NCBI GenBank assembly: GCA_963924555.1
Contig: OZ004588.1
Coordinates: 806,001 to 870,000, forward strand
Source: Crambe crambe
Lineage: Eukaryota; Porifera; Demospongiae; Poecilosclerida; Crambeidae
DNA: 64,000 nt
Direction of reading: 5' to 3'
Shown: piece after piece, positions 16,161 to 53,500 of the stretch
Numbering within the stretch: the first letter of the stretch is position 1
Layout: every line of letters begins with the position of its first letter
Position numbers and translations under genes: made by a program
Notes under the pieces: generated by a model
What the model was told of the DNA's origin: nothing
Databases searched by the model: none
What the model saw: only the letters and a program-made list of their open reading frames with translations

Positions 16161-16483
16161 CTACTCACAAGCTGGTTTGTTCAAAGCAAACTACTGGTCA
16201 GGTGACTTCATCATTATAGGTTAACCACTGACTCCATTATGGTATTCACAGTCAAAAATTAATGTAATAATTAGCCTCCATTGGTAAAAATATTTAACAG
16301 TGCTAAATAATTCATAGAGGAGCAGCTGGTCATATAGTATTATGAATAAAAGAGTACTAAATATTAATTGGTCATTTAAACAAAAGATAGTCATAATTTT
16401 GAGTGTAGCCAAAAATTAACGTTTCTTTTACTGTTTATCTGATTTATAAATAAAACACAATAATAATAATTAAGTCATTATTT

Positions 16484-25744
<9,261 letters not shown>

Positions 25745-27126: not shown

Positions 27127-28150
27127 TCAGCATTTAAAGAGTTGTAGTTTCAAGTGTTTCTTAAAAGCCAGGTGAGATGTTAGGCTCGTGATTTCGTCTG
27201 GGACATTGTTCCAGAGGGGGATGGTACTTATAAAGTAGGAGCCATGATGGTAATTTGTTCTCACTCTAGGAAGAAATATTGGCGAAGAGTTAACATGACG
27301 AACTGTGGATGAGGGGTGGGGTGTGAAAACGCTTGGTGGTATTAGTGACCCACCATGGAGAATTCGCCTGCATAGGCAGAGCTTCAGATATTGTCGCCTC
27401 ATTTTCAATGATGGCCATGTGAGCTGTTTTACAAGGTTGGGGCCATCATCTGTCCATCTTCTGGTAGCAACTTTGGCAGCAAGCTCCTGTACCCGCTCCA
27501 GTTTGCCGATGTAAGTAGTGTGATGTAGATCCCAGATACTGGCACCGTAGTCTAGGATTGGGACTACTATAGCATGGTAGAGGCGGGTGAGGCAATTTGA
27601 GTCTGCTAGGTGAAAGTGCCGATATAAAAAGCCAATGATGCGTTTTGCCTGACAGCAGGTTGCATTGATGTGTGCAGACCAGGAGAGATCGTTGGAGAGG
27701 ATGATTCCTAGGTATTTGATGGAGGACACAGTCTCAATAGCCTTCTTTCCAAGGTCTATTTTTAGGACAAGTGGCTTTTTCTTCCTTGTCACCAGCATTG
27801 CTTTAGTTTTGGTGGCATTCAATCTCAGGCCTTGAGTTTCAGTCCAGTCTTTGATGGCATTGACATCTGATTGGACGTCAAGGTAGTGATCGTCAGTACA
27901 CACCTCCTTGTAATAACATATGTCGTCAGCATACAAGGTTAAAGCTGCTCGGGCAGAAAATTTGATGTTAGTGATTGAGTCCATGGTGACTATAAAGAGA
28001 AGGGGACCTAGTATCGAACCTTGAGGCACACCAGATGTTACATAGTTGACCTCTTTTGCACATATTCGTGTAATTAAAACTGGAAAGTGAACACTTGCGA
28101 CCTTGAAGATTATCCTGAGGTCACTTCTATTCTTGGAGGGTCCTTTATAG
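27127..28150 (-). mobile_element. 5'-truncated non-LTR retrotransposon, reverse transcriptase C-terminal half
   Basis: An uninterrupted frame (in the same frame back to about 28150) encodes the end of a LINE reverse transcriptase: SGVPQGSILGPLLF, then the catalytic LYADD box, then the KTKAMLV and IKYLGIILSNDLSWSAHI motifs, and the C-terminal domain ending FKKHLKLQLF. The layout is of the CR1/L2/Jockey kind. The fingers domain, any endonuclease and any ORF1 are missing, so it cannot move by itself. The frame still being open suggests a recent insertion. Poly-pyrimidine/AT-rich sequence follows its 3' end. Confidence 0.85.
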
Positions 28151-28579
28151 ATAGATATACAGACTCTATATGCACTGTAGCCATTGTCGTTGTCATAGAA
28201 TTGGGTTAGGTATAGCTATCAACAGAGAGGTTCTGTACATGCAGCTATGCAGCTTCATCAGCCCTAGCTTGGAGTTTGTGATGGAAATGATCCATTGCTC
28301 TTAATTTATGTAATTGGAGATGGGTAGACATTATAGCAATAGGCTGGAATCCTTGAAAATCAAAGTGATTTAGCTACATAGCTAAAACTATGTGGAGCCA
28401 TGTACAGCTCTGTGAAAATCAATCCATAGTTGGCTTCCTAATGATCCAGAACTAATTATCAAGGCATTTTGTGAATGTTATTTCATGTGATTAGACGAAG
28501 TATCAAGTTAGCCTTTTCTAGTTATCTGATGAATTTCTGAGTTGCTAGGTTGATAATGACACCAGTAGCCATCCCTTGT

Positions 28580-28587
28580 TATAAAAG
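28580..28587 (+). promoter_or_regulatory. TATA box of peroxidase gene 1
   Basis: TATAAAAG 109 bp before the start codon, followed by TAGCGG. It matches the boxes before the other two peroxidases in sequence and spacing. Confidence 0.65.
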
Positions 28588-28688: not shown

Positions 28689-31600
28689 ATGAGAGCTCTG
28701 CAAATTTGCCTTCTGGCCATTTGCACAGCAGCTGCACTTGCTACATTTGAGTCTAGTGACTTCACAGATGAAGGTATAGGTTGTATTACATCAATAATTA
28801 GGTTCTGCAGCCAGCAAGTCTACTTGCCCCATGCAGTATTTATATTTCATAATTGGCAGCTATATATTTTGGGAAGTGTTGTTGTTGTTTTTTTCGAATG
28901 TGGGGTGCAAATTTTTTTTGCAGAAACTAATATATTTAAGCTATGTTTTAATAGGGTGCAATATTTTTTTCTTTGTAGAAGAAACTAGTTGCATGCAGCC
29001 TTAATGGACTCTGATTTTATGATAGCTTCACCTCCTTCTTAACACCTCTGTGATTAGTCTTTGTGCATGCATGGGAATCAGAATCTAGTAACTAGCAATG
29101 CACATGTGCATACATGAATAGCCATCAATACAGAACTTTGCATGAAGTTACTGCATTGAATTTCCTATAATGCAGAGAGATGGGAGGCCACTTTGCAAGG
29201 AGTAGAAGAAGCAAAGAAATACATGGAAAATATCCAGAATGAAGCAACAGCCGAAGCTGCTTCTTCCTCGGGATCAGCTGCAAACACTCTCTCGAAATTT
29301 TTCCGTGTGGCATCCCGCAATACTATTGCCAAGGGGCTAGCTAGAGTCACCATGGAAGAAGCTGTCAAAAACACAGAACGCATTTTGTTGGAGAAAAAGA
29401 GACTTGAAATGGCAAAGACAGCAAGTGATGACGAGAAAGCAGAAGTCCTAGCTCAGGAGCTCTACAATGAACCAGGGAGTCTTCTACAGGAAAAAGAGCT
29501 GGCTCATATCTACACTGAATCTGGGTGTCCGGGTGCTGAAGTCAGGGAGGAAGTCGATTGCAACAGTATTCCCAACTCCAGGACTCGTCGCACGATTACC
29601 GGAGTATGCAACAATCTGGAACATCCCACCCAGGGGGCATCCGAGACTCCCTTCCAGAGAATGATCCCAGCACGGTATGCCGATGGAATTTCAGCTCCTT
29701 TCAATCAGGCAGGAACTCGTAGGAAGTTCTTAAGTCCTCATCCAAGTGCCCGTTTGGTGAGTTCCAGAACTATCAGGGATGTCAGCCGCAACGACCGTCG
29801 TCTCACTCACTTAACGATGCAGTGGGGCCAGTTTATGGATCACGATCTTGACTTGGCTGTGGAAGCTCCTCCTAGTGAAGTCACATGCAACGGTTGTGCT
29901 CAGGACGGACTTTGCTTTGCTGTTGTCATTCCACCTAATGATTTCAACTTCGGCCGACGAACGAAAGCTGGCCGAAGTCTTGGTAAGTGTTTGCCCTTCA
30001 GACGTACTCTCGCAGCGTGCCCTGAGAACCCGACTGCATTTAACATTCGTGAGCAAGTGAATGAGCTGACACATTACATCGATGGTTCTATGGTGTACGG
30101 ATCCACTGATGAAGTAGCAAGTACCCTGAGGGGGAGCAATGGAAGATTAAGAGTCAGTGCAAATAACAACCTTCCTATTCACAATTCCTCCCAAGTTCCT
30201 TGTGCTCTCCCCAATGGTCCCTGTTGTCAACCGCAATTCGGAGCCAGAGGATGTTTTCTTGCCGGTGATGTTCGTGCTCTGGAACACGTATCACTCACTG
30301 TAATGCACACCATTTGGGTCCGTGAGCATAATCGTATAGTTAAAAGATTGCGTCAACTGAACCCAGGGTGGAGTAGTGATCGACTTTTCCTCGAAGCTCG
30401 AGATATTGTAATTGCACAAATCCAGCAGATTACATTTAAAGAGTATCTCCCAGCACTGTATGGCTCCAGAGCAAATATGAGGAGATTTATCCAGGATTAC
30501 AACGGATATAATCCAGAAATAGATGCTTCCATCCCAAATGTATTTGCTACAGCTGCCTTCAGATTTGGTCATAGTCAAATCCAACCCAATTTCGCTAGAC
30601 TTAATAGGAGGTTCAGGCCCATCCGCGCTGGTCCTCTGAGCTTGCTGAATTCCTTTTTCAGCACCACGGAGTTTGCCAATAGTGCAGATGGAGGGCCAGG
30701 CACGGAAGTTGACACAATTGCCCGTGGTTGGATCGCCCAGCCTGCACGAGCAGTGGATGAATTCTTGAACTCAATCCTTACAACTCAACTCTTTCAACGT
30801 GGCAAAGAACCTGGAATGGATCTTGCTACTCTGAACATCCAGCGTGGTCGTGATCATGGCCTCCCTGGATACGCAACATGGAAGAGGTTCTGTTTGAATG
30901 CATTTAGAGTCAGTAGTCCATTTCAAAGTAGCCGCACCCGAGCTCAACTAAGGAGATTGTATTTCAGTGATGAGAATATTGACCTCTTCGTTGGCGCAAT
31001 GTCAGAGAGAACCCGTAGAGGGAGCTCACTAGGAGCCATTTTGAGTTGCATATTCGGCTTGACCTTTAGTAGACTTCGTGATGGAGATAGATTCTGGTAC
31101 GAGAACAAGAATACCGTATTCAGTTCGGCACAACTGCGGCAGATTCGAAAGACCAGCTTTGCCCGGGTGCTCTGTGATAACACCAATGTGAATGCAGTCC
31201 AAAAAAATCCTTTCCTTCGCAGACAATCGAGAAGGAAATGTAGAACCATTTCTGGAATCAATCTTTCTGCCTGGAAAGAAAGGAAAGATGCAGAGGAAGA
31301 AGAGCAGAAGGCAACAACTTCGGAGTTGGAAAATGAACTAGCAAAGATTCTAGGAGATGTCCAGGAGGAGAATGACGGGGTCCCGAATGACAACCTGATA
31401 GAAGAATTGGACATAAATGAAGCTGACTCTCAAGTAAGTGTCGGATAGCTAGTATCTATTAATATTGGTATAGTAATAGCATTTAAATTAAAACTGTGGA
31501 ATAATGTTAATGAGAACGAATCATTTCTTTTCAATTTATAGGCAAGTAGTGATGAGGCTGATACAAAGACTGAGACTGAGTCGAAAGCCACAGAGAGCGA

Positions 31601-31736
31601 CGATGATGATGATGATGATGATGCTCATGGAAAAACCATGAAGGCTTCAGATGCAAAAACCATAAAGACAAATCTGGTTGAAATGCTCCAGACAGCCTTA
31701 CAGGATTTACAAAAAGAAGAGGAGCAAGAGAATTAG
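28689..31736 (+). CDS. Secreted animal haem peroxidase 1 (845 aa), lacks the C-terminal Cys domain
   Basis: Exons 28689-28773, 29176-31433 and 31542-31736. The signal peptide is MRALQICLLAICTAAALA. A helical Ala/Ser/Lys/Glu-rich region (about residues 29-160) precedes an animal haem-peroxidase domain of the myeloperoxidase/peroxidasin superfamily. Active-site residues are present: WGQFMDHD with haem-linking Asp250 and distal His251, the Arg395-x-x-Glu398 pair (RALEH), the proximal His494 in RFGHSQIQP, and LNIQRGRDHGLP. The position of the myeloperoxidase sulfonium Met is His. After SAWKE the protein runs straight into KATTSELENELAKIL, so the ~130-residue Cys-containing domain of copies 2 and 3 is absent. 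Exon 3 adds an acidic run of Asp residues and the conserved terminal helix (NLVEMLQTALQDLQ). It probably uses hydrogen peroxide outside the cell; the substrate is unknown. Confidence 0.92.
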
Positions 31737-32416
31737 CCAACTTCAGAATGATATTTTACATGAAAATCTTGTTAATTTTTTTTTGGACTTAAATTAGCTA
31801 GTGATTTTAGTCGATCCTCATTTTTAGCCCCTTTAATGCATACAAGAACTTGTATTTGATCTTCTTTTTTCCCCTGTAGACTAACTATTATTATTCTTAT
31901 TAGCAGTGTAGCTGTATTTTTTTTTGTAGTTGTAACAGCTCATTTTCATAGCTTGGAATTAGTCTTCTTGAGGTGAATTACTGTGACAACTGGTCGAGAA
32001 AAAAAAGCTGAAGTCTCCATTTCGTTTTCACATGGATATAAAAATACAGATTTCCGAAATAATTTCTAAGTTTTTTATCATTTCTAGCTACTGATTCACA
32101 CTGCAAGTTGCTAGTTGGCTATAGATATTACATCCCCTCGGGAGAAACCATAGCTGTCCAACCACTTCCTGCTTCTGGTTAGCCACTAAGTGAGAGCATT
32201 GAGTATACAGATATGAATTGATCTTAAAAGTCAGCTACCATAATTATTGGGAAATTGGGAAATTTATTTATTTTCGTGGTCATGTTCAACTACAAAATTT
32301 AATACAAATTAATAGTGTATATAAAAACTTAATAACAATAACAACAACAACAATAACAATAATTGCTGTAACAACAATAACAAACATCTCCCAATTTATG
32401 GTATAACAAGTATCCC
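31737..32416. other. 3' flank of peroxidase 1; no gene seen
   Basis: AT-rich sequence with an imperfect AACAATAACAAC repeat near 32330-32380. No coding potential found. Confidence 0.5.
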
Positions 32417-32778
32417 AACAGATCCCCCAGCTGTTGTCTGTTCTGCACCTGGCTAGCTTTTGCTATGCCAGCCTAGTACATGGATGGGTGACCCTCATGG
32501 AAAGGCTGGTGCAAGTGGGATGGTGGTGAGTTGGTGGACCTCTACCTGCAGTGCAGGTTGAGATCACCACTCCCACCAGGCAGAGTCTACTGTACTGGAG
32601 TCCACTCCTCAATTGAGGAGGTATCTCTGACACTGCATGCATCCTTTGGAAGGGATGCAAAGCCATTGATCCTGGGGGGCCTGTTAGTATTAGCCTATGG
32701 CTAGATCAGGTTGCTTGTCAGCTACTTGGTGGTGAATTTGTTTACAAAATAAACAAACAAACAAACAAACAAATAAAC
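32417..32778 (+). mobile_element. 5S rRNA-derived SINE (SINE3-like)
   Basis: The head contains GCCTAGTACATGGATGGGTG followed by ACCCTCATGG, a close match to the internal control region of 5S rRNA (TAGTACTTGGATGGGAGACCGCCTGGG). A unique body of about 230 bp follows, then a 3' tail of (AAAC)n at about 32745-32778. A pol III 5S-type promoter at one end and a simple A-rich tail at the other is the structure of SINE3 elements. It is not a functional 5S gene because the first half of 5S rRNA is not preserved. Confidence 0.75.
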
Positions 32779-34445
32779 TCTGTCCATTATAGACCTCCAC
32801 ATCTCTTCTTTTATACTGACACTATTGTCCGAGGTCACAATGACAGTATAGATCATAGTATAGAGAGATACACTGAATGAAATATCTGTAGACAAGGGAG
32901 TTCACCTATAAAGTATAGTATTACATTACATTGAAAATAATTATCTGTAATTCACACGAGGGGGTTTCACTGCAGCCCTGGATGCATGCAGTTCCAGCAT
33001 AATTACTGATAACAAACTCTAATAGATGTCTTGCATGGGGTGTGGATACTAATTCAATCATACTCTGCTAAAGGGATTAGGAGAAACTTCTGAGGTTATA
33101 CATTTAGAACTTGATACACACACTTGTTGATAATCATGTTCTTGTGATATGGGTTTTAATTTAAAAAAAACAACCCATCCATATAAGTTTTAAGATGTAT
33201 TCAACTTTCAGGGCTATGGCAACACTCATTACTAGTTGAAAAGGATGACCATCAAAAACTCATCAACTGAAGCCACTTGAGCTTGGAACCACAACAGAAT
33301 GTCTTCTTGTTTAGCTGTATGATGCATTCTATTCATTAGCCAGTAGGAAAAAGGAGGATGATGTGTGCATAGGCCATGGAGGGAAATGTTGGTGGTGTTA
33401 CATGTAGGTACATCACAGAGCATTCATGCTCTTTCAATGAAGCCATGCACTGTAGATCTTAAGATCATCTCCATTGACAGATTAAGCAAACAGCTAAAGA
33501 TGCCTTTGAAAGGGGAGGGGGGGTTTCTCTTCTCTCCGGTGCTGTTATAGTGATAATTGCAGATACAAATTGAACATTGCTTAGTTTGCAATACTCAAAT
33601 AATTATACCCAATTAACCTTTGTTGTGTGTTCTTCTCCGCATGCATTGATTCAGCTCAGGTTACTAGCTATTAGCTAAATATGAGTCATGGAGATCTAAT
33701 AAAATATTATGATGAAGTCTAATTCATACTGGGCACGTACCCCTCCCCCCTTCGAAAATTTGGCACACACCCCCTCCTTGAAACTGATATATTTGCTGTG
33801 ATTTAAAAAGGCATTGGCTATAAGTTAACCTAGGTCTATAATAGCCCTAGTTCTATGGAAGCACTGACAAAAACCCACATGGGAAACAAACCCTCGTGTG
33901 TGTATCTGCTGGTTACAAGCATGCCATGCATGCACCCGTGGCAAGTGAAGCTAGGGTTGTTAATTTAATCTAATGAGTTCCTTTTCCTTGCCACAGATAT
34001 AACCAGGTGGCCCAGTTCTCAATAAGGTCCAACGTCCTGTGGTAAAGGATGTAACCGTGGACAGGATGTAACCATAGGGTGTAAATGATGGAAGTCATAG
34101 CTAATTATCTACTAGCTGTTTAGTTGCAACAATTAGGTCACTCCATAGCTAGCTAGCTAGCTAGACAATATAGCTAGTTTAACTGCAGCTAAATTTCTTG
34201 GCCATTCAGTGCACAGTAGTACTGCACTCAAGTCTCTGAGCTTACCACATTCACTTCTAGCCCACATACTTCCTGTATGACATAATAATGTATGAAAACT
34301 CTGTACAGCTTCCTGTACATGTGGTGAAGAAGAGAAAAAAAAAGAAGCTCTTAATTTACTACATTTGGCTGCAAACTTTAAGCAAACTAGGGCTGTTGCA
34401 TATTAAAGTTCACCATTTCCTGGCAGCTGGTAGCAAGAGGGCTGC
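32779..34445. other. Intergenic region between peroxidases 1 and 2; no gene seen
   Basis: Contains GCTAGCTAGCTAG runs near 34147 and a C-rich tract near 33740-33775. Short open frames here have no recognisable features. Confidence 0.5.
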
Positions 34446-34453
34446 TATAAAAG
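34446..34453 (+). promoter_or_regulatory. TATA box of peroxidase gene 2
   Basis: TATAAAAG followed by TGGAGGACTGG, 100 bp before the start codon at 34546. Confidence 0.65.
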
Positions 34454-34545
34454 TGGAGGACTGGACAGAGGCTAGATCATAAGCTAGAGTTGGATCTTTC
34501 GATTCAGCTTTATCATATATCCGCAACGAATTCTTCACAGCAACC

Positions 34546-37500
34546 ATGAAAGCACTGCAAATTTGTCTCCTCCTGGCTGTCTACATAGCAGCAGCACTTG
34601 CTAAATTCGACTCGGATGATTTCACAGATGCAGGTATAGCCAATAATTAGCCAGCTAGCTGCATGTGGGCTTCAATTATCACATCAATTAAAAAAAAAAA
34701 AAGATTTATAGAGATTAATAGCAAGTATGTGATACTAGTAGGCTAGCTAATTAATTGCATGCATTGTTCAATGATATCTTGGACAGATTAGCCCTCATGA
34801 AATTCATTCTTGTTCAATTTTGTTCATTACAGAGAGATGGGAAGCCACTTTGCAAGGAGTCAAAGATGCGAAGCAGTACATGAAAAAAGTGGAGACAACT
34901 GCTAAAGCTGCTTCATCTTCACGGACAGCTGCACAGACTCTTGCCAAGTTTTTCCGAGCGGCATCACCCAGAGCTAAAGCCATGGGGAAAGCCAGGGTCA
35001 TGATGGAAGAAGCTGTCAAGCGAACAGAACGCATCTTGCTGGACAAAAAGAGACTTGCAATGGCAGAAGCAGCGAGCAATGACAAGGCCGAAGTGCTAGC
35101 CCAGGAACTTTACAATAAACCTGGAAGTCTACTTCAAAAGAAAGAGCTGGCTCACATTTACTCGGAATCCGAGTGCGAGGAAGTCAGGGAAGAAGTTGAC
35201 TGCGATATGATTCCCTTCTCTAATTCCATTCGCACGATCACGGGAGAATGTAACAACTTAGAACACCCCACACAGGGAGCATCCTTAACCCCCTTCCAGA
35301 GGATCATCCAAGCACAGTATGCTGATGGAATTTCAACTCCTTTCAACCAGGGGAGCTTGCCCAATAAGGGACCCTTCCTAGCCCCCAGTCCAAGTGCCCG
35401 TTTGGTGAGTGATACAACGATATTGGATCGACAGATAAACGACACTCGTCTCACTCACTTGGTCATGCAATGGGGACAGTTTATGGATCACGACCTTGAT
35501 CTAGCTGTGGAAGCTGATCCTGAGGAAGTAGCGTGTGGGGTATGTGAGCAAAGTGCCAACTGTTTGGCTGTTGTTGTACCAAATGATGATGAGGATTTTG
35601 GCGTGGGGACTCGACAGAATGGCAATTGCTTGACGTTTAGACGTACTCTCGCGGCGTGCCCTGAGAACCCGACTGCATTTAACGCTCGTGAGCAAGTGAA
35701 TGAGCTGACACATTACATCGATGGTTCTATGGTGTACGGATCAACCAATGCCCGGGCAGCTTTTCTAAGAACGAAGAACAATGGAAAACTAAGAGTTAGT
35801 GCAGGAAACAACCTTCCAATCATGAATAGCACCCAATCTCCTGAGTGCGCTCCCGATGGTCCCTGTTGTCCTCCGCAGTTTGGAGCTAATGGATGCTTTG
35901 TTGCTGGTGATATTCGTTCTCTGGAACATGTGTCACTCACTGTGATGCATACAATTTGGGTCCGTGAACATAATCGTGTTGCTGATGGTCTAGCAGCAGT
36001 CAATCCTCAATGGGATGACGAGAGACTTTTCATTGAAGCTCGAAACATCATAATAGCACAGATTCAGCAGATTACGTTTGAAGAGTATCTCCCGGCATTG
36101 TATGGCTCTTTGGGAAATATGAGGAGATTTATTGCCAATTACAGCGGCTATAACAAACTCGTGGATGCTTCAATTCCAAGCTCATTTGCAACTGCTGCCT
36201 ACAGATTCGGCCACAGTCAAATTCAACCAGTTTTTGAACGACTTGGTAATGATTTCGGCTCGATTCCTGCTGGTCCTTTGAACTTAGTCGATTCCTTTTT
36301 CAGTCCCACCGAATTTCAAAACAGTGCTGTCAATGGACTGGCCACAGCAGTGGACTCAATTACTCGTGGTTGGATTGTCCAGCCTGCACGTGCATTGGAT
36401 GAGTTCTTAAATGAAGTAATTACCACACAGCTCTTAGAAACTGAAGAGGAGGTTGGAATGGATCTGGCTACACTGAACATCCAGCGTGGTCGTGATCATG
36501 GTCTCCCTCGCTATGGGACATGGAGAAGCTTCTGTAGAAATGCTTTTAACGTCCGGCGTCCTTTCCGCAACATGCTCACAAAAATACGCCTCATGCAACT
36601 CTATGGCATGACGGATAATGCCGATCTTTTTGTAGGGGCACTCGCAGAAGAAGCCCTTACTAATGGACGGGGCGTTTTAGGAGCCATCTTGGCGTGCATA
36701 TTTGGTTTGACCTTTAGCAGACTTCGTGACGGAGATCGATTCTGGTACGAGAATAGGGATCCCAATCTGGAACTCTTCAATGACGCACAACTGGAGCAGA
36801 TCCGAAGAACCAGTTTTGCTAGGGTGCTTTGTGACAACACAAATTTGGAAGATATCCAACGTAATCCTTTCCTTCAAGGTAACCGGGGAGAAATCTGTAA
36901 TCCTCAATTCAGTAGTATTGCTGGAATTGATTTTTCTGCCTGGAGAGAGGAAGATGTTTGTGCGTACAGAGCAACTTTCCGCCTTGACGACATGCGGTCG
37001 TTTGACTTGACAAACAGGCCTCAGGGAACAGGAAGGAACAGTGTAACGAACTTTAATTTCGTGTCCAACACAACCAGCACACAATGCATTCCTATCATAT
37101 GTCCCACGGCATCTCTAGCTACAGATGTCATTGCCTCTCCGAAATTTTCCTCCAGAAGTGGCTGTAGATTGGTTGGGACGACAAGACTAGTGTTTGTACA
37201 GAGAATCCAACAGAGTGATATACAATCCAATGCCGCACTTTTCGCTACTGAGACACAATGCAAGCAAAGCACAACCACTAACGTTCTCTACACATACGAT
37301 TGTCGTTCTCAACCCACCAGTGAGAAAGCAAAGGCAACAACAGCAGATTTGGAGGAAGAACTAGCAAAGATTCTGAATGTCAGGGAAGACACTCCCCCAA
37401 AGGCTCCATATGGTTACTTGGAGCATTTCAAAGTTACTAATGATCTACCACGTGATCTTCTGAATGCATATGACACAGACCCTCCAGTAAGTCTATAACT

Positions 37501-38232
37501 ATATATATATATATAGTGTGGAAAACTTCATGGAAAATATTGGTGGGAGTAACCTTTTCGTAGTTATCTATATACACCCAAGTAGCTTTGGGGCAATCAC
37601 TATACTGGAAAATAGTGGGTAGGTATTAATGATGGCTTAAATAGTTGCAAAGTAATAGATAAAAGTTTTCCATAATACCATATAGCATGATATTTTCGTG
37701 GGAAATTTTTTCGTGGATTTCGTGGTACATGATAATACGAGAATTCCATGAAAATTTTGACCTACGAAAAATTTTGTGCTATATATATGGTAGTTACAAT
37801 AGAACCTCTAATAAATGACACTCCAAAGAGGACTGTTTAAATAAAAGAAAAAAAACAAAAAAACTCCGAAAGAGGACAACCTCTCTATAAATTGTTGGGT
37901 CCCAAGTGTGTGCATGTGCATTACTTAAGGTTTCACTGTATCCTATTGTTCCATAATATACCCATCTCACCTCGTCTGGTGTAGTTGACCCTTTACCATA
38001 TATCAGGAGATATGGTACCATGCCATCTCCCCTATGTTCTACAGCCTGTATATCATCATTGCCACACCCATACTGATTCTTTTTTCTCTCATTGCAGACA
38101 ATGAGAAGCAAGGTTCAGGCGGAGAAAACCAAGGGTTCAAGTTTGAAAACAACTGTTAAAGAAAGCGGCACAAAGAATGACTTGATTAATATGCTCCAGG
38201 CAGCACTCCAAAAGCTAAAAGAGAATAATTAA
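34546..38232 (+). CDS. Secreted animal haem peroxidase 2 with C-terminal Cys domain (958 aa)
   Basis: Exons 34546-34633 (signal peptide MKALQICLLLAVYIAAALA), 34833-37486 and 38098-38232. A helical Ala/Lys-rich region spans about residues 30-160, and the haem-peroxidase domain about 162-725: WGQFMDHD (Asp248, distal His249), RSLEH (Arg391, Glu394), YRFGHSQIQP (proximal His490), LNIQRGRDHGLP (Asn578). A further domain of about 130 residues starts FSAWREEDVCAYRATFRLDD and contains conserved cysteines, ending VLYTYDCRSQ; I do not recognise it. Then come KATTADLEEELAKIL and the short exon 3 helix NDLINMLQAALQKLKENN, shared with its neighbours. DNA from about 36829 to 37040 is almost identical to copy 3. 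Intron 2 holds an inverted-repeat element. The same extracellular peroxidase role as copy 1 is inferred. Confidence 0.93.
37676..37792. mobile_element. Palindromic MITE in peroxidase 2 intron 2
   Basis: The left end TACCATATAGCATGATATTT is mirrored by the right end TGCTATATATATGGTA, with internal TTTTCGTGGG...CCTACGAAAA also in inverted orientation. Similar foldback sequences (ATTTTTGTGGG, AAAATTTTTGTG) occur near 18836-18930 and 53585-53695, so this is a dispersed family. A fragment of another dispersed element (37795-37950) follows directly. Confidence 0.6.
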
Positions 38233-39785
38233 CTGATGTGCTGAAGACTAGATATATTATGAACTGATGCAACATTGTGTCCATTTTTTATGTAGCTAAC
38301 TAGAGAATTTATTTTCCTTTTTTAAAAATGAAGTTACAATTTTGTAGAAGAATTGATTGTTTTGTTGTTATAAAGAATTTGAGATGAACTATGTTGCAAG
38401 AATGAGGTGCCATCAACAAATGAAAACATTTGACAGCTAGCGGGCAAGCAGAGGAACGTAGCCGATAGGTTCAAACTCATTTGTGTGGATAGCTAGGTGT
38501 CTTGCTGTTGATTTGGCAGTTTGATGACAGTTTGATGGCAAGTGTTTTATTTGTGGTTATTAGGAGTTGATATTAAGCTGGAGCAATCCGGCTGTATATA
38601 CTATTAGAGCATGTACATTATGCATGTGCAGGGGATTGCTATAATCACAACACATGTGTATGTCTGGGGCATTTTGGAGTGTAGACCTATACAGGGTTGT
38701 CCCCAGAAAAAAAAAGTAGAGCGGTAAATTGTGTCACTGTGCATGCGTGTAATCAGTCGCACGTGAGATCGTCAGGCCGAGTTTCGAACTAACTGTAGAG
38801 CTAGAGTCATATTGAAGTAGTGAAAATAGCTTAGTTAGTTCATTATTCCAAGCTCATAAGCTTAAAAGCCTACCTTACCGCTGGTGCTGGATTCTCTCCG
38901 TGCACTAGCTAGCTGAGCCAGACTATAGCTAGCTTTTATTGAAGTCTAAGCTTTTATAGGAGATAGCGCGGCGTTGCAGCACGCTCTGGGGACAGCCCTG
39001 CTATATATACATATCCAGCTGGCTCACTTGCTGAAATTATACACAAGACAGAAACTCAATACACATGCAAAAGTTAAAATAATATATGGAACCTCGAGCA
39101 ATAAAGGACACTCCCAAAAGAGGAAAAACCTCTGGACAATGGATTTACAGTGTATAAAAGTAATACGTTACCTCCTAACCTCTCTAAATGACTGCATGGT
39201 CCTAATGTGTCTCTAATTATTATTCACTGTGCATGACCATGGTGGATCTCTGTCATCAGGGACTTTCATACATCCTCGATGCTTTTCAACCCTTGCATTT
39301 TCACACATGAGAATTAACCCACAAGGGCAGTTGCGATGATTATAAGTAGAGTAACCAATTTTGGGAATACAAATGAGTGGTAAAAGCACTTGAAACCATC
39401 CAACTACTTCCCACTTCCACAAGTGTAAGCAAATATTTAGCTCTGAATAGACCATAATTAATGTGAGCAGGATATCCTTGACCATAATTCACTAATGATT
39501 GCAAAGCTGAAGAACTAGAGCAGCTTAGATGAATTTCACTATCCGCCATCATGAAGACTATAAACAAACTTGGTAGAATTGTAGTGGATTTGTGGGACAT
39601 GAGATCATGTACCATCGACCACCTGTGTGAAAAGGGTGAAACCTTCTTTCATAAGATAACAGCTTGATCTTAGCCCCTTAGCCACATCAATGCTAAATTC
39701 AAGGGTTGTACATGAGAATCAAATTCCTACCTTTTCCTGGAACACACATGCATGGGACTCACTTGTACAGCATGCATGCACTTGC
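38233..39785. other. Intergenic region between peroxidases 2 and 3
   Basis: No intact gene. Contains a relative of the TGGAACCTCC MITE family at 39088-39212 and a possible decayed exon at 39213-39485. Confidence 0.45.
39213..39485 (-). pseudogene. Possible decayed exon of a secreted protein
   Basis: A minus-strand stretch reads IGYSTYNHRNCPCGLILMCE followed by GCMKVPDDRDPPW, which looks like real extracellular protein with spaced cysteines. The upstream part is in a different frame and no start, signal peptide or splice structure was found. It could be a pseudogene fragment or chance. Confidence 0.25.
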
Positions 39786-39793
39786 TATAAAAG
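39786..39793 (+). promoter_or_regulatory. TATA box of peroxidase gene 3
   Basis: GC-TATAAAAG-C, 130 bp before the start codon at 39916. Confidence 0.6.
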
Positions 39794-39915
39794 CAAAAAA
39801 TTTGGCAGAAATTAAATCATAACTGGTCAGTTTTAGAGGATCTTTGAAAGGGGATCCAGCTCCTGTCAATCAGCAATAAACGATCATATAGATCTATCGT
39901 TTCACCACTGCAATT

Positions 39916-42900
39916 ATGAAAGCTCTGCGAATATGTCTTCTAGTTACTACGTTGACAGCAATCTCTACAACTGCATATGCAAAATTCACATCCAGTGATT
40001 TCACAGATGCAGGTAGTGTTTCAGGTTTTGCTATAAGCTATAACAATGTTCTCTCTCTCTCTCTCTCTCTCTCTCTAGCTAGCTAGCTAGCTAACTATAT
40101 AAAGTCATTTGATATTTCATCTTTATAGAGAGATGGGAAGCCACTTTGCAAGGAGTCAAGGAAGCGAAGAAATACATGGAAGATGCACGAAGTACTGCAA
40201 AAGCAAAGGCTGCCTCCTCTTCATCTTCACAAACAGCTGCAAAGACACTTGCAAAGTTCTTCCGAGTGGCCTCTCCCAAAGCTAAAGCCATGGGGAAGGC
40301 CAGAGTCACGATGGAAGAAGCTGTCAAGCGAACCGAACGCATCTTGCTGGACAAAAAGAGACTTGCAATGGCAAAAACGGTAAGCAAAGAGGAGAAGGCT
40401 GAGATATTAGCTCAAGAACTTCATAATGAACCTGGGAGCCTTCTTCAAGAGAAAGAGCTGGCTCACATTTACCAGGAGTCTGGTTGTGTAGAAGTCAAAA
40501 TGGATCGAAACACCGACTGCGATATGATCCCTTTTGCTAAATCCATTCGCACGATCACGGGAGAATGCAACAACTTGGAAAACCCTACTCAAGGAGCTTC
40601 TTTCACTCCTTTTAATAGAATTCTTCAAGCACAGTATGCCGATGGGATTTCAGAGCCATTCAACCAGGGAGGAAGAAGAGGTAAGGGCCCTTTTGTACCT
40701 CCCAGTCCAAGTGCCCGTTTGGTGAGTGATACTGCAGTGAGAGATCGACAGGTAAACGATTCTCGGCTAACTATCTGCCTGATGATGTGGGGTCAGTTTA
40801 TCGATCATGATAACGTCTTGGCTGGGGAGCCCGATCCAGCAGAAGTACCGTGTGGTGATTGTGAGCAAAGTGCAAACTGTCTGGCTGTTCGGATCCCAAA
40901 TGACGATGAAGACTTTGGTGTAGGGACGCGACAAAATGGAGTGTGCTTGCCATTTCGACGCTCACTTGCTGCATGTCCGGAGAACCCAAGTGCTTTCAAT
41001 CCTCGGGAACAGATCAACGAACTCACGCATTACATTGATGGGTCTATGATATATGGATCCACAAATGCCCGGGCAGCTTTTGCAAGAACAAATACTGGAG
41101 ATGGAAAACTAAGAGTTAGTGCAGGAAATAACCTTCCAATCATGAATAGTTCCCAATCTCCTGCGTGTGCACCCGATGGCCCGTGCTGTCCTCCTCAATT
41201 TGGTGATAATGGATGCTTTTTTGCCGGTGATGTTCGTGTGCTTGAACACGTATCTCTCACAGCATTGCAAGCTATTTTTGTGCGCGAGCACAATCGCGTC
41301 GTCGATGCCTTGGCTCAAGTCAATCCACAATGGGATGGAGAGCGACTGTACCTTGAAGCTCGTAACATTGTGATAGCAGAGGTTCAGCAAATCACATATT
41401 ATGAATATCTTCCAGCTCTTTATGGCACCAGAAGAAACATGGAGAGATTCATTCCCCCTTATAAGGGTTACAACCCACGTGTTGATGCCTCCATTCCAAA
41501 TAGCTTTGCTTCTGCTGCTTACAGATTCGGCCACAGTCAAGTTCAACCATTTTTTGAAAGACTTGGTAACGACTTCACATCCATCAGTGCAGGTCCTTTG
41601 AGTCTAAGGGATTCTTTCTTCACCACCACTGGGTACTTTGGCAGCGCTGATAATGGGATTGGAACTGAGGCAGACACGCTCCTTCGAGGGTGGCTTACCA
41701 CACCAGCACGTGAAGTAGATGAGTTTGTCAATTTCGTTCTCACTACTCAGCTCTTTGAAACTGATAATCAAACCGGAATGGATCTCGTTACTCTGAATAT
41801 TCAACGTGGTCGCGATCATGGTCTCCCTCGCTATGGAACGTGGAGGAGGTTCTGTATGAATGCATTCAATGTCCGACGCCCTTTCCGCAATGATCTGACT
41901 AAAATACGCCTCAGACAACTCTACGGAATGGAACAGAATATCGATCTATTCGTAGGAGCGCTAGCAGAAGAGCCCTTAGCAAGGGGAGGGGGAGCATTGG
42001 GAGCTGTTACGAGCTGCATATTTGGTTTGACCTTCAGCCGACTTCGTGACGGAGATCGATTCTGGTACGAGAATAGGGATCCCAATCTGGAACTTTTCAC
42101 TGAGGCACAACTGCAGCAGATACGAAGAACTAGTCTAGCCCGGATACTCTGTGACAACACAAATTTGGAAGATATCCAACGTAATCCTTTCCTTCAAGGT
42201 AACCGGGGAGAAATCTGTAATCCTCAATTCAGTAATATTGCTGGAATTGATTTTTCTGCCTGGAGAGAGGAAGATGTTTGTGCGTACAGAGCAACTTTCC
42301 GCCTTGATGACATGCGGTCGTTTGACTTGACAAACAGGCCTCAGGGAACAGGAAGGAACAATGTAACAAATTTTAATTTTGTGTCCAACACAACCAGCAC
42401 ACAATGCATTCCTATCAAATGTCCCACAGCATCTCTAGCTACAGATATCATTGCATCTCCAAGATTTACCTCCAGAAGTGGCTGTAGATTGGTTGGTACT
42501 ACAAAACTAGTGTTTGCACAGAGAGTCCAGCAGAGTGATATACAATCCAATGCTGCACTTTTTGCTACTGAGACACAATGCAAGCAAAGTTCAACCACTA
42601 ACGTTCTCTACACATACGACTGTCGTTCTCAGACCTCAAGTGAGAAGAAAGCAAAGGCAACAACAACAGATTTGGAGAAAGAATTAGCAAAGATTCTTCA
42701 AAGGAAGGACGACACTCTCATGAAATACCCTTATGGACTTTTGGTACCTTTCAAGGTTACTGATGACCTACCACGTGATCTTTTGGATGCATATGACAGA
42801 GATCCTCCAGTAAGTGGGTCTTTAATGATATACAATACTAGTCTCACAGCATTTTTATTTAGAGGGGAAAATAGGCTTAGGACAGAAATGTATGAATGAA

Positions 42901-43099
42901 TTTAGGTTTCTAAATCTCATATGCACCCACTCCTCTGTTTCTTTTGCAGTCAATGAATGGCAAAACAGAGAAGATTTCTAGTTCCAAGGCTCGGGCCAAA
43001 GCCTCAAGGGCTAACACCAAAGATGATACCTCAAAAACAGGAAGAAAGGAACTAATCGACCTACTCCAGACTGCAATCCAGGAGCTGAAAAATAACTAG
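39916..43099 (+). CDS. Secreted animal haem peroxidase 3 with C-terminal Cys domain (975 aa)
   Basis: Exons 39916-40012 (signal peptide MKALRICLLVTTLTAISTTAYA), 40129-42809 and 42950-43099. Same order as copy 2: helical Ala/Ser/Lys region, haem-peroxidase domain, Cys-containing domain beginning FSAWREEDVCAYRATFRLDD, KATTTDLEKELAKIL, and terminal helix ELIDLLQTAIQELKNN. Catalytic residues are kept: WGQFIDHD (Asp258, distal His259), RVLEH, YRFGHSQVQP, LNIQRGRDHGLP. Local differences from copies 1 and 2 are MMWGQ for MQWGQ, DHDNVL for DHDLDL beside the distal His and calcium-ligand region, and ALQAIF for VMHTIW after the Arg-x-x-Glu pair. These may alter substrate access. Read-through of the second intron donor would give a different, shorter tail. 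Convergent with the gene at 43415-46672. Confidence 0.93.
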
Positions 43100-43414: not shown

Positions 43415-46400
43415 CTAATTGAATTCTTTTGGGAGAGATCTTGCATGCTGAAATTAGGTGATGAAAACCCAGGCCGTAGAATCATGCTATTCAAGTACAT
43501 CATACCGTTTGCCTCAGGTCTCCTGATAAAGTTTTCTTTTTCACAGGAGGCGGATTTTCAAAATATGGGGGTCTTTTCACAGCTAAAGGCAAATTGAGAT
43601 CGCTTGGCACATAGCGGAATCCTGAAGGATGAAGAAAGAAAGAAAGAAAAAAAGAAAGAAAGAAAGGAGGAGGAGGAAGAAGAAAAAAGAAGGATAAGAA
43701 GCAGTATAATTATGAAAAAATTAAATAAAGACTTAAAGTGCCAGTCCTACTCGAATAAATTTTAGACTAAAGCTTACTTCCAGAACCATTTAACTTGATT
43801 ACAGTAGAGCCACCGATCCTTGCACCATTCTTGAATTTGGAACCAGTCTCAAGAAAAGATGTACAATCAGAATCAGTCTTTTGGCTCTGCCCACAAGTCA
43901 GTCTTGACCTCAAATCAAAACGATTTGGTATAAAATTGGTACTGGCATCAGGTTGAGGTATAATTGTACTGTTGTTGTACAAACCAGTTCCAAATAAACT
44001 GGTTCCAAGATTTGTCGGCTTCCTTTGAGCAGTGAGCGATGAAAAAAGAAGAGCAGCACTGTCCGGTGAGAAGTTGAAATCTTTGTATTTTTGTTGAGGA
44101 TATTTTATAGACGGAGATAGCTGTTGACGTCTTTTATGGTTGCTTATTATTGTAGTTATTGGGGATGGTGTTTCAGGTCTTGCACTTGGTTCGCTTTGGT
44201 TACATGTACCTGCTGCTGCTGTCAACACTCTTGGAGCTGGGGGAAAGGCTATCTTACATGAAGCTGCAGCTGTCGATGCTGTATTCAACACTCTTTGAGA
44301 GGGAGGAACTAGCTTAGAGGTAGCCGCTGCTGTTATTGGGGATGGAGTTTCAGGTCTTGTACTAGGTTCACTTTGGTTACATGTACCTGCTGCTGCTGCT
44401 GTCTTTAACACTCTTGGAGCTGGGGGAAAAGCTATCTTACATGAAGCTTGAGAGGGAGGAACTAGGTTAGAGGTAGCCGGAGTTTCAGGTCTTGTACTAG
44501 GTTCACTTTGGTTACATGTACCTGCTGCTGATGATGCTGTCTTTAACACTCTTGGAGCTGGAGAAGGACATGTACTCACTGCTTCTCTTTGAGAGGGAGA
44601 AGCTGTTGTTGATGTTGTATTCAACACTCTTTGAGAGGGAGGAGCTAGTTTGGAGGTAGCTGCTGCTTTTGGAGAGGAAGGAGCTAGTTTTTCATGGAGT
44701 CTGTTTTTGAATCTTGGAGATGGAGGACTTGGTATGATGTCTGTTTTCTTTGGAGAAAAAAAAAAGCAGCTAGTGTGGTGTGTCATGAAGTAACAATATT
44801 AGCTGTAGTGACAGTGTCATTGTGTGGTTTTATGTAAAGTGCATGATCTCTCACCAGGGGCTAGGTGTCTCCTACTAACAAACTGGCCTATAGCTGTAGC
44901 TTAAACTAGGGTTAAAGAGTTCTACCCCTGAATAAGTCAGGTTAATAAGTTCATCCGACCTACAAATTAGTCTGGCATAGTCGACCCTTTACCATATTTC
45001 CCTCCAGGAGGAAAGGGTCTGGATACATGACTTGTGCATGCAGCAGGAATCATTTTTTATACCTAACGAACCACAAAAATTTCAATTGCACCGTTCAGCG
45101 AGCAACTCGCTCTTCTGTCCCTGCTTTGGCTGTCGTGCAGTGAAACAGCAATACCCGAGTCCTTGAATGATAGTAATAGTTGCAGTTTCCATGGAACTAA
45201 AATCGATCTGGCAAATGATAAAGTATGAAAGCTGGCCTCTTAGTGCCTCGATGGTAAGCTTGCACATGTGATTGGAAGCAAATAAAGCAACCTGATTGGT
45301 CCTGCAACAATAGTTGCAGCTGCACAAGTTGTATATGCTAGTAAGTCCAGACCCTTTCCCAGATCCTCCCAGAGGGGGTACAAATTCAGGTCCATACCCA
45401 GGAATTTTTGAAAGGGGGGTTCCAATAATCTGTGTGCTTGCGCGCGGAAATTTTTTGCATGGCCACGCTCACTTTTCCTGACCACACCCATTTTGATAGA
45501 TCTGTGTACGCTGTTGCAGCTGTTAACTGTAGATTGTAGGCAGTCAGGGAGTAGCTGATGAAGATGGTACCACTTCTACCTGTACAGTTGTCCAAGTCTT
45601 ACTTTATAATACAAGCTGAACTTAGCAGAGCTAATAGCTTTAGGCACAATAGATCTATAGCTGTTTTAAATTCAGTAGCCTAGGGGTGGGTTATAGCTAG
45701 CTAAAAACTGACCTTTTCTGGACAATAGGCTTTGTTAGACTTGTTCTCTTTCTCTCTGCTTTGAGCTAGCTCATGCACATGAACTAAAATGATTTTTAAT
45801 GATGCGTGCGATGTAAGTGCGCGTTTAAAATTCAATTTGAAAAGGGGGTTTGATCGAACCCCCGAACCCCCGCTGGGTACAGGCCTGAAATTACATGCCT
45901 AATGGGTATTAATTGTAACATCAATAATAATGTAGATGTATGATCACTGCCATCTCATACCTCTGCATGCTCTGTGAAACTAGCAGGTGGTTGATCGCCA
46001 AATAACAAAGCATCATCTTCATCCTCAAAAAGTTCGCTGAAACTTTATTATTAACATCACCGTGGTAATTCATTACTTCACATACCATCATTAGCTTATA
46101 CTTAAAGTGGGGAAATCCCCATGAAACCTTGCTAGTGCACTATACTAAATTAGGTTAAAGTCCCACTCCAAATGATATAACATCACCATGGTAATTCAAG
46201 TACCTCAGTTTAAATGACACCATGATTTCCTCTCTCTCCCCTTCCCTTCAAAAAGGAAACTCCATTCAAAAGAGGGATTTTCCACTAATAGACATTATTG
46301 TCATAGTCACTGATATGGCTATTATACGTATAATGTGCCCTAAGAAGCCTAAGAGATGCTTATCTTGTAAAGACATCAAACGATCACCAGATCCTGCGCA

Positions 46401-50479: not shown

Positions 50480-50549
50480 TCTCGCGCGCGCGAGATCGCA
50501 CGTGGGTTGAATGACTGCGCTCTAAATAGAAAAAAAAACAGGTTCTACA
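50480..50549 (+). promoter_or_regulatory. CpG-rich upstream region of OXA1L
   Basis: CTCTCGCGCGCGCGAGATCG, a palindromic TCTCGCG-type element, followed by CACGTGGG, within 70 bp of the start codon. No TATA box; typical of housekeeping starts. Confidence 0.5.
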
Positions 50550-53500
50550 ATGTTATCTGCAATAAGAACAGGAACATGTAGCCGTGGATGTATTTTATCA
50601 ACCTCTAGACATTCAAGTATTTATTCTCATAACATTTCTTCGGGCTCATCGATTATCTGGTCGCGGAGACCATCAGCCCCTGTCGATCACCTTACCAGAT
50701 GCAGGCTTTTGAGTACATTACCAACATCATCCAGTCAAGCAGCTGATTCCCAGATAATTCAAGACACATCCAGTCCTCCTGTTCCTCCCACAGAAGCATT
50801 CCAAACATCCTCACATGAAATATGGGCAGCTGATGCTGCAAAACTCTTATCCGAGAATGAAACTTTTACCGATCTTGGTCTTGGAGGTTACTCACCAATT
50901 GGACTTCTTCAATCTTCAATGGAATTCTTTAACAGCTCCCTCGGGTTGCCGTGGTGGGGGGCCATTGTGGCTAGCACCCTCTGCCTAAGGGTACTCTTTA
51001 TCCCCCTCAATATTTATATCCGGAAAAATGCAGTCAGATTAAACAATATCAACCCTGAGGTCGAAAAATTCAAAGATAAGATGAATTTGTACCTTACTGT
51101 TGGGAAAACCGAACTAGCCAACTTGGAGAGACGTAAAATGAACGCTGTTTTCAAAAAGCACGGAGCTCGACCCATTCTCTCTGTGATTCCCATGTTGTTT
51201 CAAGGTGGAATCTTTTTAAGCTTCTTTGTGGCAATTCGACGGATGGTGAATGCTCCGGTGGTTGGCATGATGAATGGAGGGGCATTGTGGTTCACAGATC
51301 TGACAGTACCTGATCCTGCTTATGTGCTACCCATCATCTCCACCGCATCACTTCTGGTCAGTTTGGAGGTAGGTTTGGAGAAACTCATATTGGAGGGAAA
51401 TTCCGGGGAAAAGTACTCCCTGGAAAAATAGAGGGAAACTCCTGGGATATTGGAGAAAACTCCGGGGAAAAGGACAGATACTGGAGGGAAACTCCTGGGA
51501 AAAGGACAGATACTGGAGGGAAACTCCCGGGAAAAGGATAGATGTGGAGGAAACTCCTGTAGATATTGTTATTATCCATTCTTTTAAATGTTGAGTCAGC
51601 TAGGTGGAGAGGCTGGAGTTAAGAACCCACAGATGGAAAAGACAAAGAAATACTTTCGTATTGCAGCTATTGGTATGATAGCAGTTACATCCCGGCTTCC
51701 TGCTGTGAGTCCAATATTACATTGGTATTAACATCACTGTTTGCATTTAATAAAGGGCTGGGATAGTCAAGAATTTTGGTAAAGGGGTATTATGCTATAA
51801 CTGTTAGCTTCTGGTAAAGGGTCATTGGGCCGTAACAGTTAGCATTTGGTAAAGGGTCGTCATGAGATCTAGTAAAGGATTGTGCTCAAATTGCGGTGCT
51901 GATTTCTCGTTTATTATTCCAATTTCTTCAATGCCCCTTAGGGTCTCTTTATGTACTGGTTGCCTTCTCTGGCATTCTCCATTTGTAATGTTCTGGTGCT
52001 AAAGTTGCCGGGTATTCGTGGCCTCCTGGGAATAGACGACGAGATAAATGTCCAAGGCAACCCTCAAGACAAAAGACTAACTTGGAGCGAGAGTGAGTCA
52101 GTTTCCCTTAAAAAAAATGAGCCAATGAAAGTGAGATTATGGTGCTCTTTATTAAGAGTTTGGGGTTCCCCCTAAGAGGATTATATTGACTTCATTAGGT
52201 GGTGCTCTTTATTAAGAATTAGGTGCTTCCCTAATGGTTTACCTCACAGTAATATGAATTGCACAATATCTGAAGCTATTGCGGAACTTAGCATGGCTTC
52301 AGTTTTGAGTTAGTCTTTCACTGTTGTGTGTTGATATTGGAAGGTGGGTGGTATACTTTCATCGTAACATAATGTAACGGTAGAGCAATGGACGTGTGAC
52401 CATATTTGGGAGGGGGAGGAGGTAAGGGAGAGAGGGTGATACATTTATTATGGCAGGTTATTCTTCAAGTGTAATTAGACTGAGCTTTGCCCAGTGACCA
52501 GGCTCAAGAAGAATGCGTGGTAAACTTAAAAGTGGGTGGAGTTAATCAGATTAATTATAATATGATATCACTTAGTTATCTCCACAGTTACCCTAACCCT
52601 TAATAAGGCTATGAGTAATTGAAACCAATTATGCACCCACTGGTCAGAGGTTCCCCATAGTTACCCCATGCAACTTTAAACATGGCAATGAACTAAATTA
52701 TTACCAGGGATATACCCACTGTTCGTAACCACATAGGGGAAAATGAAGTTACTCCAACTCTTAAATGGGGCAATGAACTAATTATCAGGGATGTACCCAC
52801 TGTTCATACCACATAGGGAAACTAATAATTACCAGGGATATACCCACTGTTCATAACCACATAGGGGAAAAGGAAATTGCCCCAACTCTTAAACAGGGCA
52901 ATGAACGAATACAGTGAAAACTCTCTTAGTGAACTCTCCATATTCAGGATGAAAAAACCTCTTTATTGGTGATATTTTTTCAAGGAACCATTATTGCTAA
53001 TACAAACTGAATCTCTGAAGAGTAGAAACCTCTCTATTAGGAGATCCCATGTCCGCTGTATAAGAGGTCCCACTGTGTACTCAACTGTTCATACCACATA
53101 GGGAATGTAATATTTATCACAGCAGGTGTTATGTGTGGCCACTTGCATTGGAACTAAAATAATGTTTGGAACTTTCCATCAATTTGCTTCCAACTTCATA
53201 ACATCCTTATCCAATTTATGTCCACATTCTTGTGCAAGCTAATAATATTATAATAGTGTCTGTCATTCTAGCCCCCAGGGCCTAATAGTGTCTGTCATGA
53301 TTAGCTTATCATTCCTTTCACTGGAAAACAAGAGCAGCTGTCCACAAGGAGAGGAGCGTCGGGGTTGAATTTTATCTCTTTCCGATGTCTCTCGTATTCT
53401 TGTGCAGAAATCTGATATTTCAGTTACCTTATTATTGTGATAGTGAACTTGATGTTATAGGATGTTAATTATTAGGGTCATGTGACATTCACATGATATT

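What the first reader, a model, noticed from the sequence alone, without database searches (positions are those of the whole stretch)
28689..43099. Tandem cluster of three secreted haem peroxidases with unusual flanking regions
All three copies combine a signal peptide, a ~130-residue helical Ala/Ser/Lys-rich region, a complete catalytic peroxidase domain and a conserved short C-terminal amphipathic helix on its own exon. I know of no named peroxidase class with this N-terminal region plus terminal helix. The helices may drive oligomerisation or anchoring of an extracellular cross-linking or defence enzyme.
Basis: partly seen in the sequence, partly recalled or inferred. Interest (0 to 1): 0.72.

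Follow-up and report, generated by a model that had tools for sequence, protein, structure and literature searches.

The report
Sponge peroxidases with new tail domain
Three neighbouring genes in what is probably a sponge encode secreted relatives of human myeloperoxidase; their odd front part turns out to be the known pro-segment of such enzymes, while their tail, a cysteine-rich domain in two of them plus a short end helix, matched nothing in the libraries searched and recurs in sister genes of the same animal.

Summary
In detail: three tandem, open, probably secreted animal haem peroxidase genes (845, 958, 975 aa) lie at 28689-43099, each with an N-terminal region, a complete catalytic domain and a C-terminal helix. 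The reading of the N-terminal region does not hold: it is a pro-region of the myeloperoxidase kind. A nine-row profile matches vertebrate pro-regions end to end (P 2.5e-7; 0 of 100 shuffles; reversed control fails). The pro-region Cys and its core partner (MPO Cys158-Cys319) are both kept in 12 of 13 peroxidases found in this genome and both gone in the thirteenth. It was seen in 8 of the 13 genes, was probably lost by copy 1, was homogenised between copies 2 and 3, apparently by gene conversion, and has no Pfam match above cut-off and no PDB match. A 13-residue helix pattern ends 7 of the 13. The three genes branch outside peroxidasin plus TPO/MPO/LPO. Likely use: oxidation of halides or phenols at extracellular matrix or in granules, with the tail docking the enzyme; inferred, not shown. 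New variant of a known kind.

The parts
28689..31736 (+). copy 1 (POX1), three exons 28689-28773, 29176-31433, 31542-31736; 845 aa
   Evidence: splice model; PF03098
34546..38232 (+). copy 2 (POX2), three exons 34546-34633, 34833-37486, 38098-38232; 958 aa
   Evidence: splice model; PF03098
39916..43099 (+). copy 3 (POX3), three exons 39916-40012, 40129-42809, 42950-43099; 975 aa
   Evidence: splice model; PF03098
29176..29528 (+). pro-region of copy 1, ends at the Cys equivalent to MPO Cys158
34833..35176 (+). pro-region of copy 2
40129..40487 (+). pro-region of copy 3
29529..31280 (+). catalytic peroxidase domain, copy 1; ends where MPO ends (SAWKE)
35177..36949 (+). catalytic peroxidase domain, copy 2
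40488..42269 (+). catalytic peroxidase domain, copy 3
36950..37309 (+). extra six-Cys C-terminal domain, copy 2 (absent from copy 1)
   Evidence: Pfam only below cut-off (tRNA-Thr_ED, E 0.026); family profile has no PDB match
42270..42629 (+). extra six-Cys C-terminal domain, copy 3
   Evidence: no Pfam or PDB match
36720..37299 (+). tract much more alike to 42040-42619 of copy 3 than the rest (gene conversion inferred)
   Evidence: four-fold sites differ 7/53 in the extra domain vs 99/201 in the catalytic domain, p 1.5e-6; dS 0.19 vs 1.08 and identical runs
31281..31352 (+). conserved segment before the linker, copy 1 (...KATTSELENELAKIL)
   Evidence: alignment
37310..37375 (+). conserved segment before the linker, copy 2
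   Evidence: alignment
42630..42698 (+). conserved segment before the linker, copy 3
   Evidence: alignment
31668..31733 (+). terminal amphipathic helix, copy 1
38176..38229 (+). terminal amphipathic helix, copy 2
43046..43096 (+). terminal amphipathic helix, copy 3
28580..28587 (+). TATAAAAG 109 bases before the start codon, copy 1
   Evidence: consensus only
34446..34453 (+). TATAAAAG 100 bases before the start codon, copy 2
   Evidence: consensus only
39786..39793 (+). TATAAAAG 130 bases before the start codon, copy 3
   Evidence: consensus only

Best explanation
A tandem triplet from an early-branching clade of secreted animal haem peroxidases, probably in a demosponge. Each enzyme is made as a preproprotein. 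The N-terminal region is an MPO-type pro-region, tied to the core by a disulfide (copy 1 Cys146-Cys310, copy 2 Cys144-Cys305, copy 3 Cys152-Cys315) that, as in proMPO, should help folding and ER exit and mask a surface of the core. The mature enzyme binds haem by two ester links and should oxidise halides, thiocyanate or phenols with H2O2. The tail (a cysteine-rich domain, lost again in copy 1, then a flexible linker and a short amphipathic end helix) is a lineage-specific docking module that places the enzyme on an extracellular scaffold or in a secretory granule, for cross-linking or halogenating matrix protein (favoured) or for killing microbes. Shown: gene structure, catalytic residues, pro-region homology (by profiles), the conserved Cys pair and its joint loss, tail conservation, unequal divergence of copies 2 and 3. 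Inferred: gene conversion, disulfide formation, secretion, activity, docking and biological use.
For: PF03098 full length; best solved relative of copy 3 is MPO (E 7e-104); catalytic residues. Pro-region: a profile of 9 rows of this genome against 6 vertebrate rows, hhalign 89 percent global and 91 percent local, P 2.5e-7 and 9.3e-7, 96 columns in global mode, 0 of 100 shuffles in either mode, reversed profile 2.0 against 39.2 in global mode; against the two MPO rows alone, whose letters were seen in PDB chains, P 3.6e-4 global and 1.4e-3 local, 0 of 100 shuffles. With copies 1-3 alone the global score was reached by 0 of 150 shuffles, and by 1 of 150 when the xSGC end was cut off. Cys158/Cys319 equivalents: both in 12 of 13 genes, both gone in S91b; 0 of 76 prokaryotic relatives have a Cys within three columns of either place. 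proMPO Cys158-Cys319 link and its role: passages of PMC5437232. Tail: the extra domain is in 8 of 13 genes; a profile made without copies 2 and 3 finds both first among 675 window ORFs (E 7e-8, 3e-7); end-helix pattern in 7 of 13. Parsimony on the tree: one gain, losses in copy 1 and S99 (3 changes). Context: a haem peroxidase 'similar to peroxidasin' is in the skeletal proteome of the sponge Vaceletia (passages of PMC4633127).
Against: No structure could be predicted. The trees flag copies 1-3 and the vertebrate rows for unusual letter make-up, and no test of rival topologies was run. No expression, localisation or activity data. Nothing separates matrix use from defence use. The end-helix pattern was not seen in 6 of 13 genes, though last exons of S92, S95 and S98 were not sought; it is weakly amphipathic in S97 (528 of 5000 shuffles) and S93 (163 of 5000).
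Confidence: 0.6

Rival explanations
1. Same enzyme family, but used chiefly for defence: stored in granules of wandering cells and released to make hypohalous acid, like MPO and EPO, with the end helix as a granule sorting signal.
For: Closest solved structures are MPO and LPO, with EPO further down; pro-region kept; tandem copies and unequal divergence that points to gene conversion are common in defence genes (general knowledge); two DUOX-like genes, possible H2O2 sources, are present (domains checked for one).
Against: The sulfonium Met of MPO is His; a cysteine-rich tail domain is not part of MPO; no expression data.
Confidence: 0.3
2. The N-terminal region is a new oligomerisation domain and the terminal helix its partner, making a homotrimer.
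For: Amphipathic end helix (shuffles reaching the observed moment 15, 61 and 15 of 5000 for copies 1-3; segments chosen by eye); peroxidasin works as a trimer (passages of PMC8533639).
Against: The N-terminal region is homologous to the MPO-type pro-region, which in proMPO blocks dimerisation (passages); the end helix is only 13-17 residues; copy 1 keeps the helix without the extra domain.
Confidence: 0.08
3. The genes are peroxidasin or peroxinectin orthologues with degenerate accessory domains.
For: Of four vertebrate rows, copy 2 is most identical to the recalled peroxidasin (41 percent); a sponge proteome paper calls such a protein similar to peroxidasin.
Against: They fall outside the clade of peroxidasin plus TPO/MPO/LPO (99/97), while another gene of the same genome, S95, groups with that clade (91/88); no leucine-rich repeat, Ig or von Willebrand C match in the long-exon or last-exon translations. 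Peroxinectins could not be tested.
Confidence: 0.07
4. Copies 2 and 3 gained the extra domain, copy 1 is the ancestral form.
For: Copy 1 is the outgroup of copies 2 and 3 (100/98).
Against: Homologous domains in S91a, S91b, S93, S94, S96, S97 outside the triplet make one gain and two losses the shortest history (3 changes).
Confidence: 0.05

Closest known systems
Vertebrate peroxidases MPO, EPO, LPO, TPO (family 1 of the peroxidase-cyclooxygenase superfamily)
   Same: Pro-region ending in the Cys158-type cysteine, complete catalytic domain that ends at the same place as MPO, two ester-link residues, core Cys319 equivalent.
   Different: Branch outside the clade of vertebrate peroxidases plus peroxidasin; no sulfonium Met; additional C-terminal parts; copy 2 is 38-39 percent identical to MPO, LPO and TPO (LPO and TPO rows recalled).
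Peroxidasin (family 2)
   Same: Same catalytic domain family; similar segment before the core with the SGC cysteine (recalled sequence); additional C-terminal parts.
   Different: No leucine-rich repeats, Ig domains or von Willebrand C module found by Pfam; outside its clade.
Sponge skeletal haem peroxidase of Vaceletia (PMC4633127, passages)
   Same: Sponge, haem peroxidase called similar to peroxidasin, found in the skeletal proteome.
   Different: Sequence not compared; no tail domain is mentioned in the passages seen.
Bacterial and archaeal PF03098 peroxidases
   Same: Catalytic domain, 32-41 percent identity in the best segment (best 80 of 125 loci).
   Different: No Cys within three columns of the Cys158 or Cys319 places in 76 of 76 full-length frames; no match at E 1 to the tail or extra-domain profiles among 3289 ORFs of the 80 loci.

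Membership tests
Animal haem peroxidase (PF03098) | Full-length catalytic domain with distal Gln/His/Arg, proximal His/Asn | tested here: met
Animal haem peroxidase (PF03098) | Covalent haem by Asp and Glu esters | not testable with these tools
   residues present, bonds not testable
MPO-type preproprotein | Homologous pro-region before the core | tested here: met
   weak with single sequences and not found in PDB by profile search
MPO-type preproprotein | Cys158-Cys319 disulfide | tested here: inconclusive
   both residues present in 12 of 13 genes and both absent in S91b; bond itself not tested
Chordate peroxidases (family 1) | Falls inside the MPO/LPO/TPO clade | tested here: not met
   trees, (LPO and TPO rows recalled)
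Peroxidasin (family 2) | LRR, Ig and VWC domains | tested here: not met
   (long exon and last exon of each gene, scanned apart; the 28-32-residue first exon was not scanned)
Peroxidasin (family 2) | Falls with peroxidasin in a tree | tested here: not met
   one recalled human row only
Peroxinectin (family 3) | Integrin-binding KGD-type motif and clade | not tested
   no arthropod peroxinectin sequence available; Dictyostelium peroxinectin A is a weaker match than MPO and LPO

The most novel reading that the evidence does not exclude
Sponges evolved their own branch of MPO-type proenzymes in which a new cysteine-rich domain plus a C-terminal docking helix addresses a haloperoxidase to the skeleton or granule; the pro-region and its disulfide tether to the core are older than the split between this branch, peroxidasin and vertebrate peroxidases, so they were part of the first animal peroxidases. 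These enzymes would be candidates for the unknown halogenating or cross-linking enzymes of sponge skeletons.
Probability: 0.3. Interest if true: 0.62.

Novelty: new variant of a known kind. Interest (0 to 1): 0.43.

Why it matters
It shows that the pro-region and the cysteine pair studied in human proMPO occur in a distant animal branch, with a natural joint absence of both cysteines that supports their pairing. It also defines a new C-terminal domain and an end-helix pattern that can be tested for matrix or granule targeting. Brominated components of sponge skeletons are known (starts of the abstracts of PMC5334614 and PMC3705403 in a search listing); whether these enzymes make them is open.

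Tried and rejected
Single-sequence comparison of the pro-regions with vertebrate ones was weak (in 9 of 15 pairs more than 5 percent of shuffles did as well), as was a PDB search with copy 1's pro-region alone (no peroxidase listed), a first hmmsearch of 675 window ORFs (copy 2 top at E 0.017, copies 3 and 1 in the noise at 3.5 and 5.7) and a PDB search with the nine-row pro-region profile, which did not list MPO. Profile-profile comparison of copies 1-3 alone was suggestive and became clear after further genes were found. PDB and Pfam searches for the extra domain gave nothing above cut-off. Scans of prokaryotic genomes and viral contigs for the extra domain found nothing, nor did a viral scan with the whole alignment. 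Rfam: 0 matches at gathering thresholds in the window. The idea that the domain was an insertion in copies 2 and 3 was dropped. Literature: in the listings of nine searches I saw no title or abstract start that describes this tail in sponge peroxidases; of eight papers I saw passages only, none was read whole.

Rows dropped: S98 (near-copy of S99 with an apparently broken frame) was left out of the second tree and of the nine-row profile; S92 and S96 were also left out of that profile, S95 was tested apart; one ORF per bacterial locus was kept for the first tree (73 of 76) and 10 of these 73 for the second.

Full report
What is there. Three open peroxidase genes lie head to tail on the + strand at 28689-43099. 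Each has three exons with the same intron phases: a signal-peptide exon, one long exon of 2.3-2.7 kb, and a short last exon. All three match the animal haem peroxidase family over its full length; the other Pfam matches, in copies 2 and 3, are below cut-off. Mapping to human MPO gives Gln257, Asp260, His261, Arg405, Glu408, His502 and Asn587 in all three copies; the position of the sulfonium Met is His. Between copies dN/dS is 0.11-0.39 in the regions compared. A TATAAAAG box stands 100-130 bases before each start codon.

The animal. The window is part of a 143.1-Mb assembly in 119 contigs. The same assembly holds six sites that read CGA-S-YAF, the silicatein active-site motif with Ser for Cys (motif and query recalled), in a cluster on contig C15 where the silicatein query also matches; the best matches to the query elsewhere are of the cathepsin type with Cys. 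A silicatein-bearing demosponge is therefore likely; no tool named the species.

The N-terminal region. I first found only weak likeness to vertebrate pro-regions. The genome search (27 exon matches, counts are lower bounds) then showed 13 non-DUOX peroxidase genes, the three here plus ten others, and two DUOX-like genes (domains of one DUOX checked). I call the ten S91a, S91b, S92 to S99 after their loci. A profile of nine of the thirteen pro-regions matches six vertebrate pro-regions end to end: hhalign probability 89 percent, P 2.5e-7 in global mode, 96 columns, 0 of 100 column shuffles as good, and the reversed profile scores 2.0 against 39.2. Against this, the same nine rows as a single profile do not find MPO in the PDB. 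One gene of the same animal, S95, has a pro-region that the vertebrate profile finds directly (E 1.3e-9 with Z set to 1000), though S95 alone does not match the nine-row profile significantly (11 of 100 shuffles).

The cysteine pair. In human proMPO, Cys158 of the pro-region is linked to Cys319 of the core, which blocks dimerisation and is needed to leave the ER (passages of PMC5437232). Both cysteines map in copies 1-3. Across the 13 genes, 12 have both and S91b has neither. Of 76 prokaryotic relatives none has a Cys within three columns of either place. This joint conservation and joint absence supports a disulfide, which I could not test directly.

The tail. Copies 2 and 3 carry about 120 residues with six cysteines after the point where MPO ends; copy 1 does not. 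Homologous domains stand at the same place in S91a, S91b, S93, S94, S96 and S97 (four cysteines in the first two, six in the rest), so 8 of 13 genes have it; in S92 and S95 later exons were not sought. A profile made without copies 2 and 3 finds them at E 7e-8 and 3e-7, first and second of 675 window ORFs. Three single-protein searches of the genome found it in peroxidase genes and in one decayed fragment only. Pfam gives matches below cut-off only, and the PDB none. On the tree the shortest history is one gain and losses in copy 1 and S99 (3 changes). Between copies 2 and 3 the domain is far more alike than the catalytic part: four-fold sites differ at 7 of 53 against 99 of 201 (p 1.5e-6), dS 0.19 against 1.08. 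Gene conversion is the simplest cause.

The end helix. The last residues of copies 1-3, S91a, S91b, S93 and S97 fit one 13-residue pattern with Leu at 2, 6 and 13, Leu or Ile at 10, a hydrophobic residue at 3 and Glu or Gln at 7: 7 of 13 genes. The exon-3 linker before it is 15-31 percent identical between copies 1-3. The moment is reached by 15, 61 and 15 of 5000 shuffles for copies 1-3, by 21 and 36 for S91a and S91b, and by 163 and 528 for S93 and S97; I chose the segments by eye, so these numbers flatter. The same loose motif also occurs three times elsewhere in window ORFs (6 hits, 3 of them the copies), so its place at the very end, not the motif alone, is the evidence.

Where the enzymes belong. 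With 73 prokaryotic rows as outgroup, copies 1-3 join the animal rows (100/100) and lie outside peroxidasin plus TPO, MPO and LPO (99/97). With nine further genes of this genome, all of them but S95 form one clade with copies 1-3 (11 rows, 100/99) and S95 groups with the vertebrate rows (91/88). LPO, TPO and peroxidasin rows are recalled; several animal rows have unusual letter make-up. Arthropod peroxinectins were not available.

What it does. H2O2-driven oxidation of halides, thiocyanate or phenols follows from the family and the conserved residues. Secretion follows from the hydrophobic start and the disulfide-rich family. A tail that is kept through wide divergence suggests docking to a scaffold or sorting to a granule; this is inference. 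I favour a matrix role because a haem peroxidase is part of a sponge skeletal proteome (passages of PMC4633127). Demosponges lack detectable collagen IV (passage of PMC5395295), so the known peroxidasin reaction would need another substrate. A defence role is the main rival.

Verdict. The cluster is real; its N-terminal region is of a known kind; its tail is a new variant. Published descriptions of this tail were not seen in the listings of nine paper searches, which cover open-licence papers only.

Noticed in passing
window 27130-28215, - strand: Reverse transcriptase frame just upstream of the cluster (PF00078, E 7.5e-15); probably a non-LTR element.
   Followed up: no
window 11453-25413, - strand: Exon-like frames that look like repeated sialic acid-specific acetylesterase genes; two weak SASA matches below the Pfam cut-off.
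   Followed up: partly
window 50526-51428 +, 58029-59141 +, 60554-61078 -: OXA1-type membrane insertase (PF02096), Fam20-type kinase (PF06702) and a DUF4442 protein.
   Followed up: no
window 43770-44798, - strand: Low-complexity Pro/Ser-rich frame with internal repeats next to copy 3; no Pfam match.
   Followed up: no
window 40773-40817 (copy 3, residues 248-262): Copy 3 departs from its sisters beside the distal His: an extra Cys249 and MMWGQFIDHDNVL for MQWGQFMDHDLDL.
   Followed up: no
L099 (G000:C21:2503500-2511500, - strand): Peroxidase S99 lacks the extra domain and carries a very long tail of repeated amphipathic-looking segments (1251-residue frame; no Pfam match above cut-off in the tail); S98 is a near-copy with an apparently broken frame.
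   Followed up: partly
L095 (G000:C15:2945500-2951500): S95 groups with peroxidasin/TPO/MPO and is 50 percent identical to recalled peroxidasin, although a review dates peroxidasin to the Porifera-Cnidaria divergence (passage of PMC4420034); its accessory domains were not searched.
   Followed up: partly
L104 (near G000:C15:2242970): Decayed copy with part of the extra domain and an intact-looking end helix.
   Followed up: partly
L100, L101 (G000:C20:3010000-3023000): Two adjacent DUOX-like genes (peroxidase, EF-hand and ferric-reductase domains in L100; L101 read as alike), a possible H2O2 source.
   Followed up: partly
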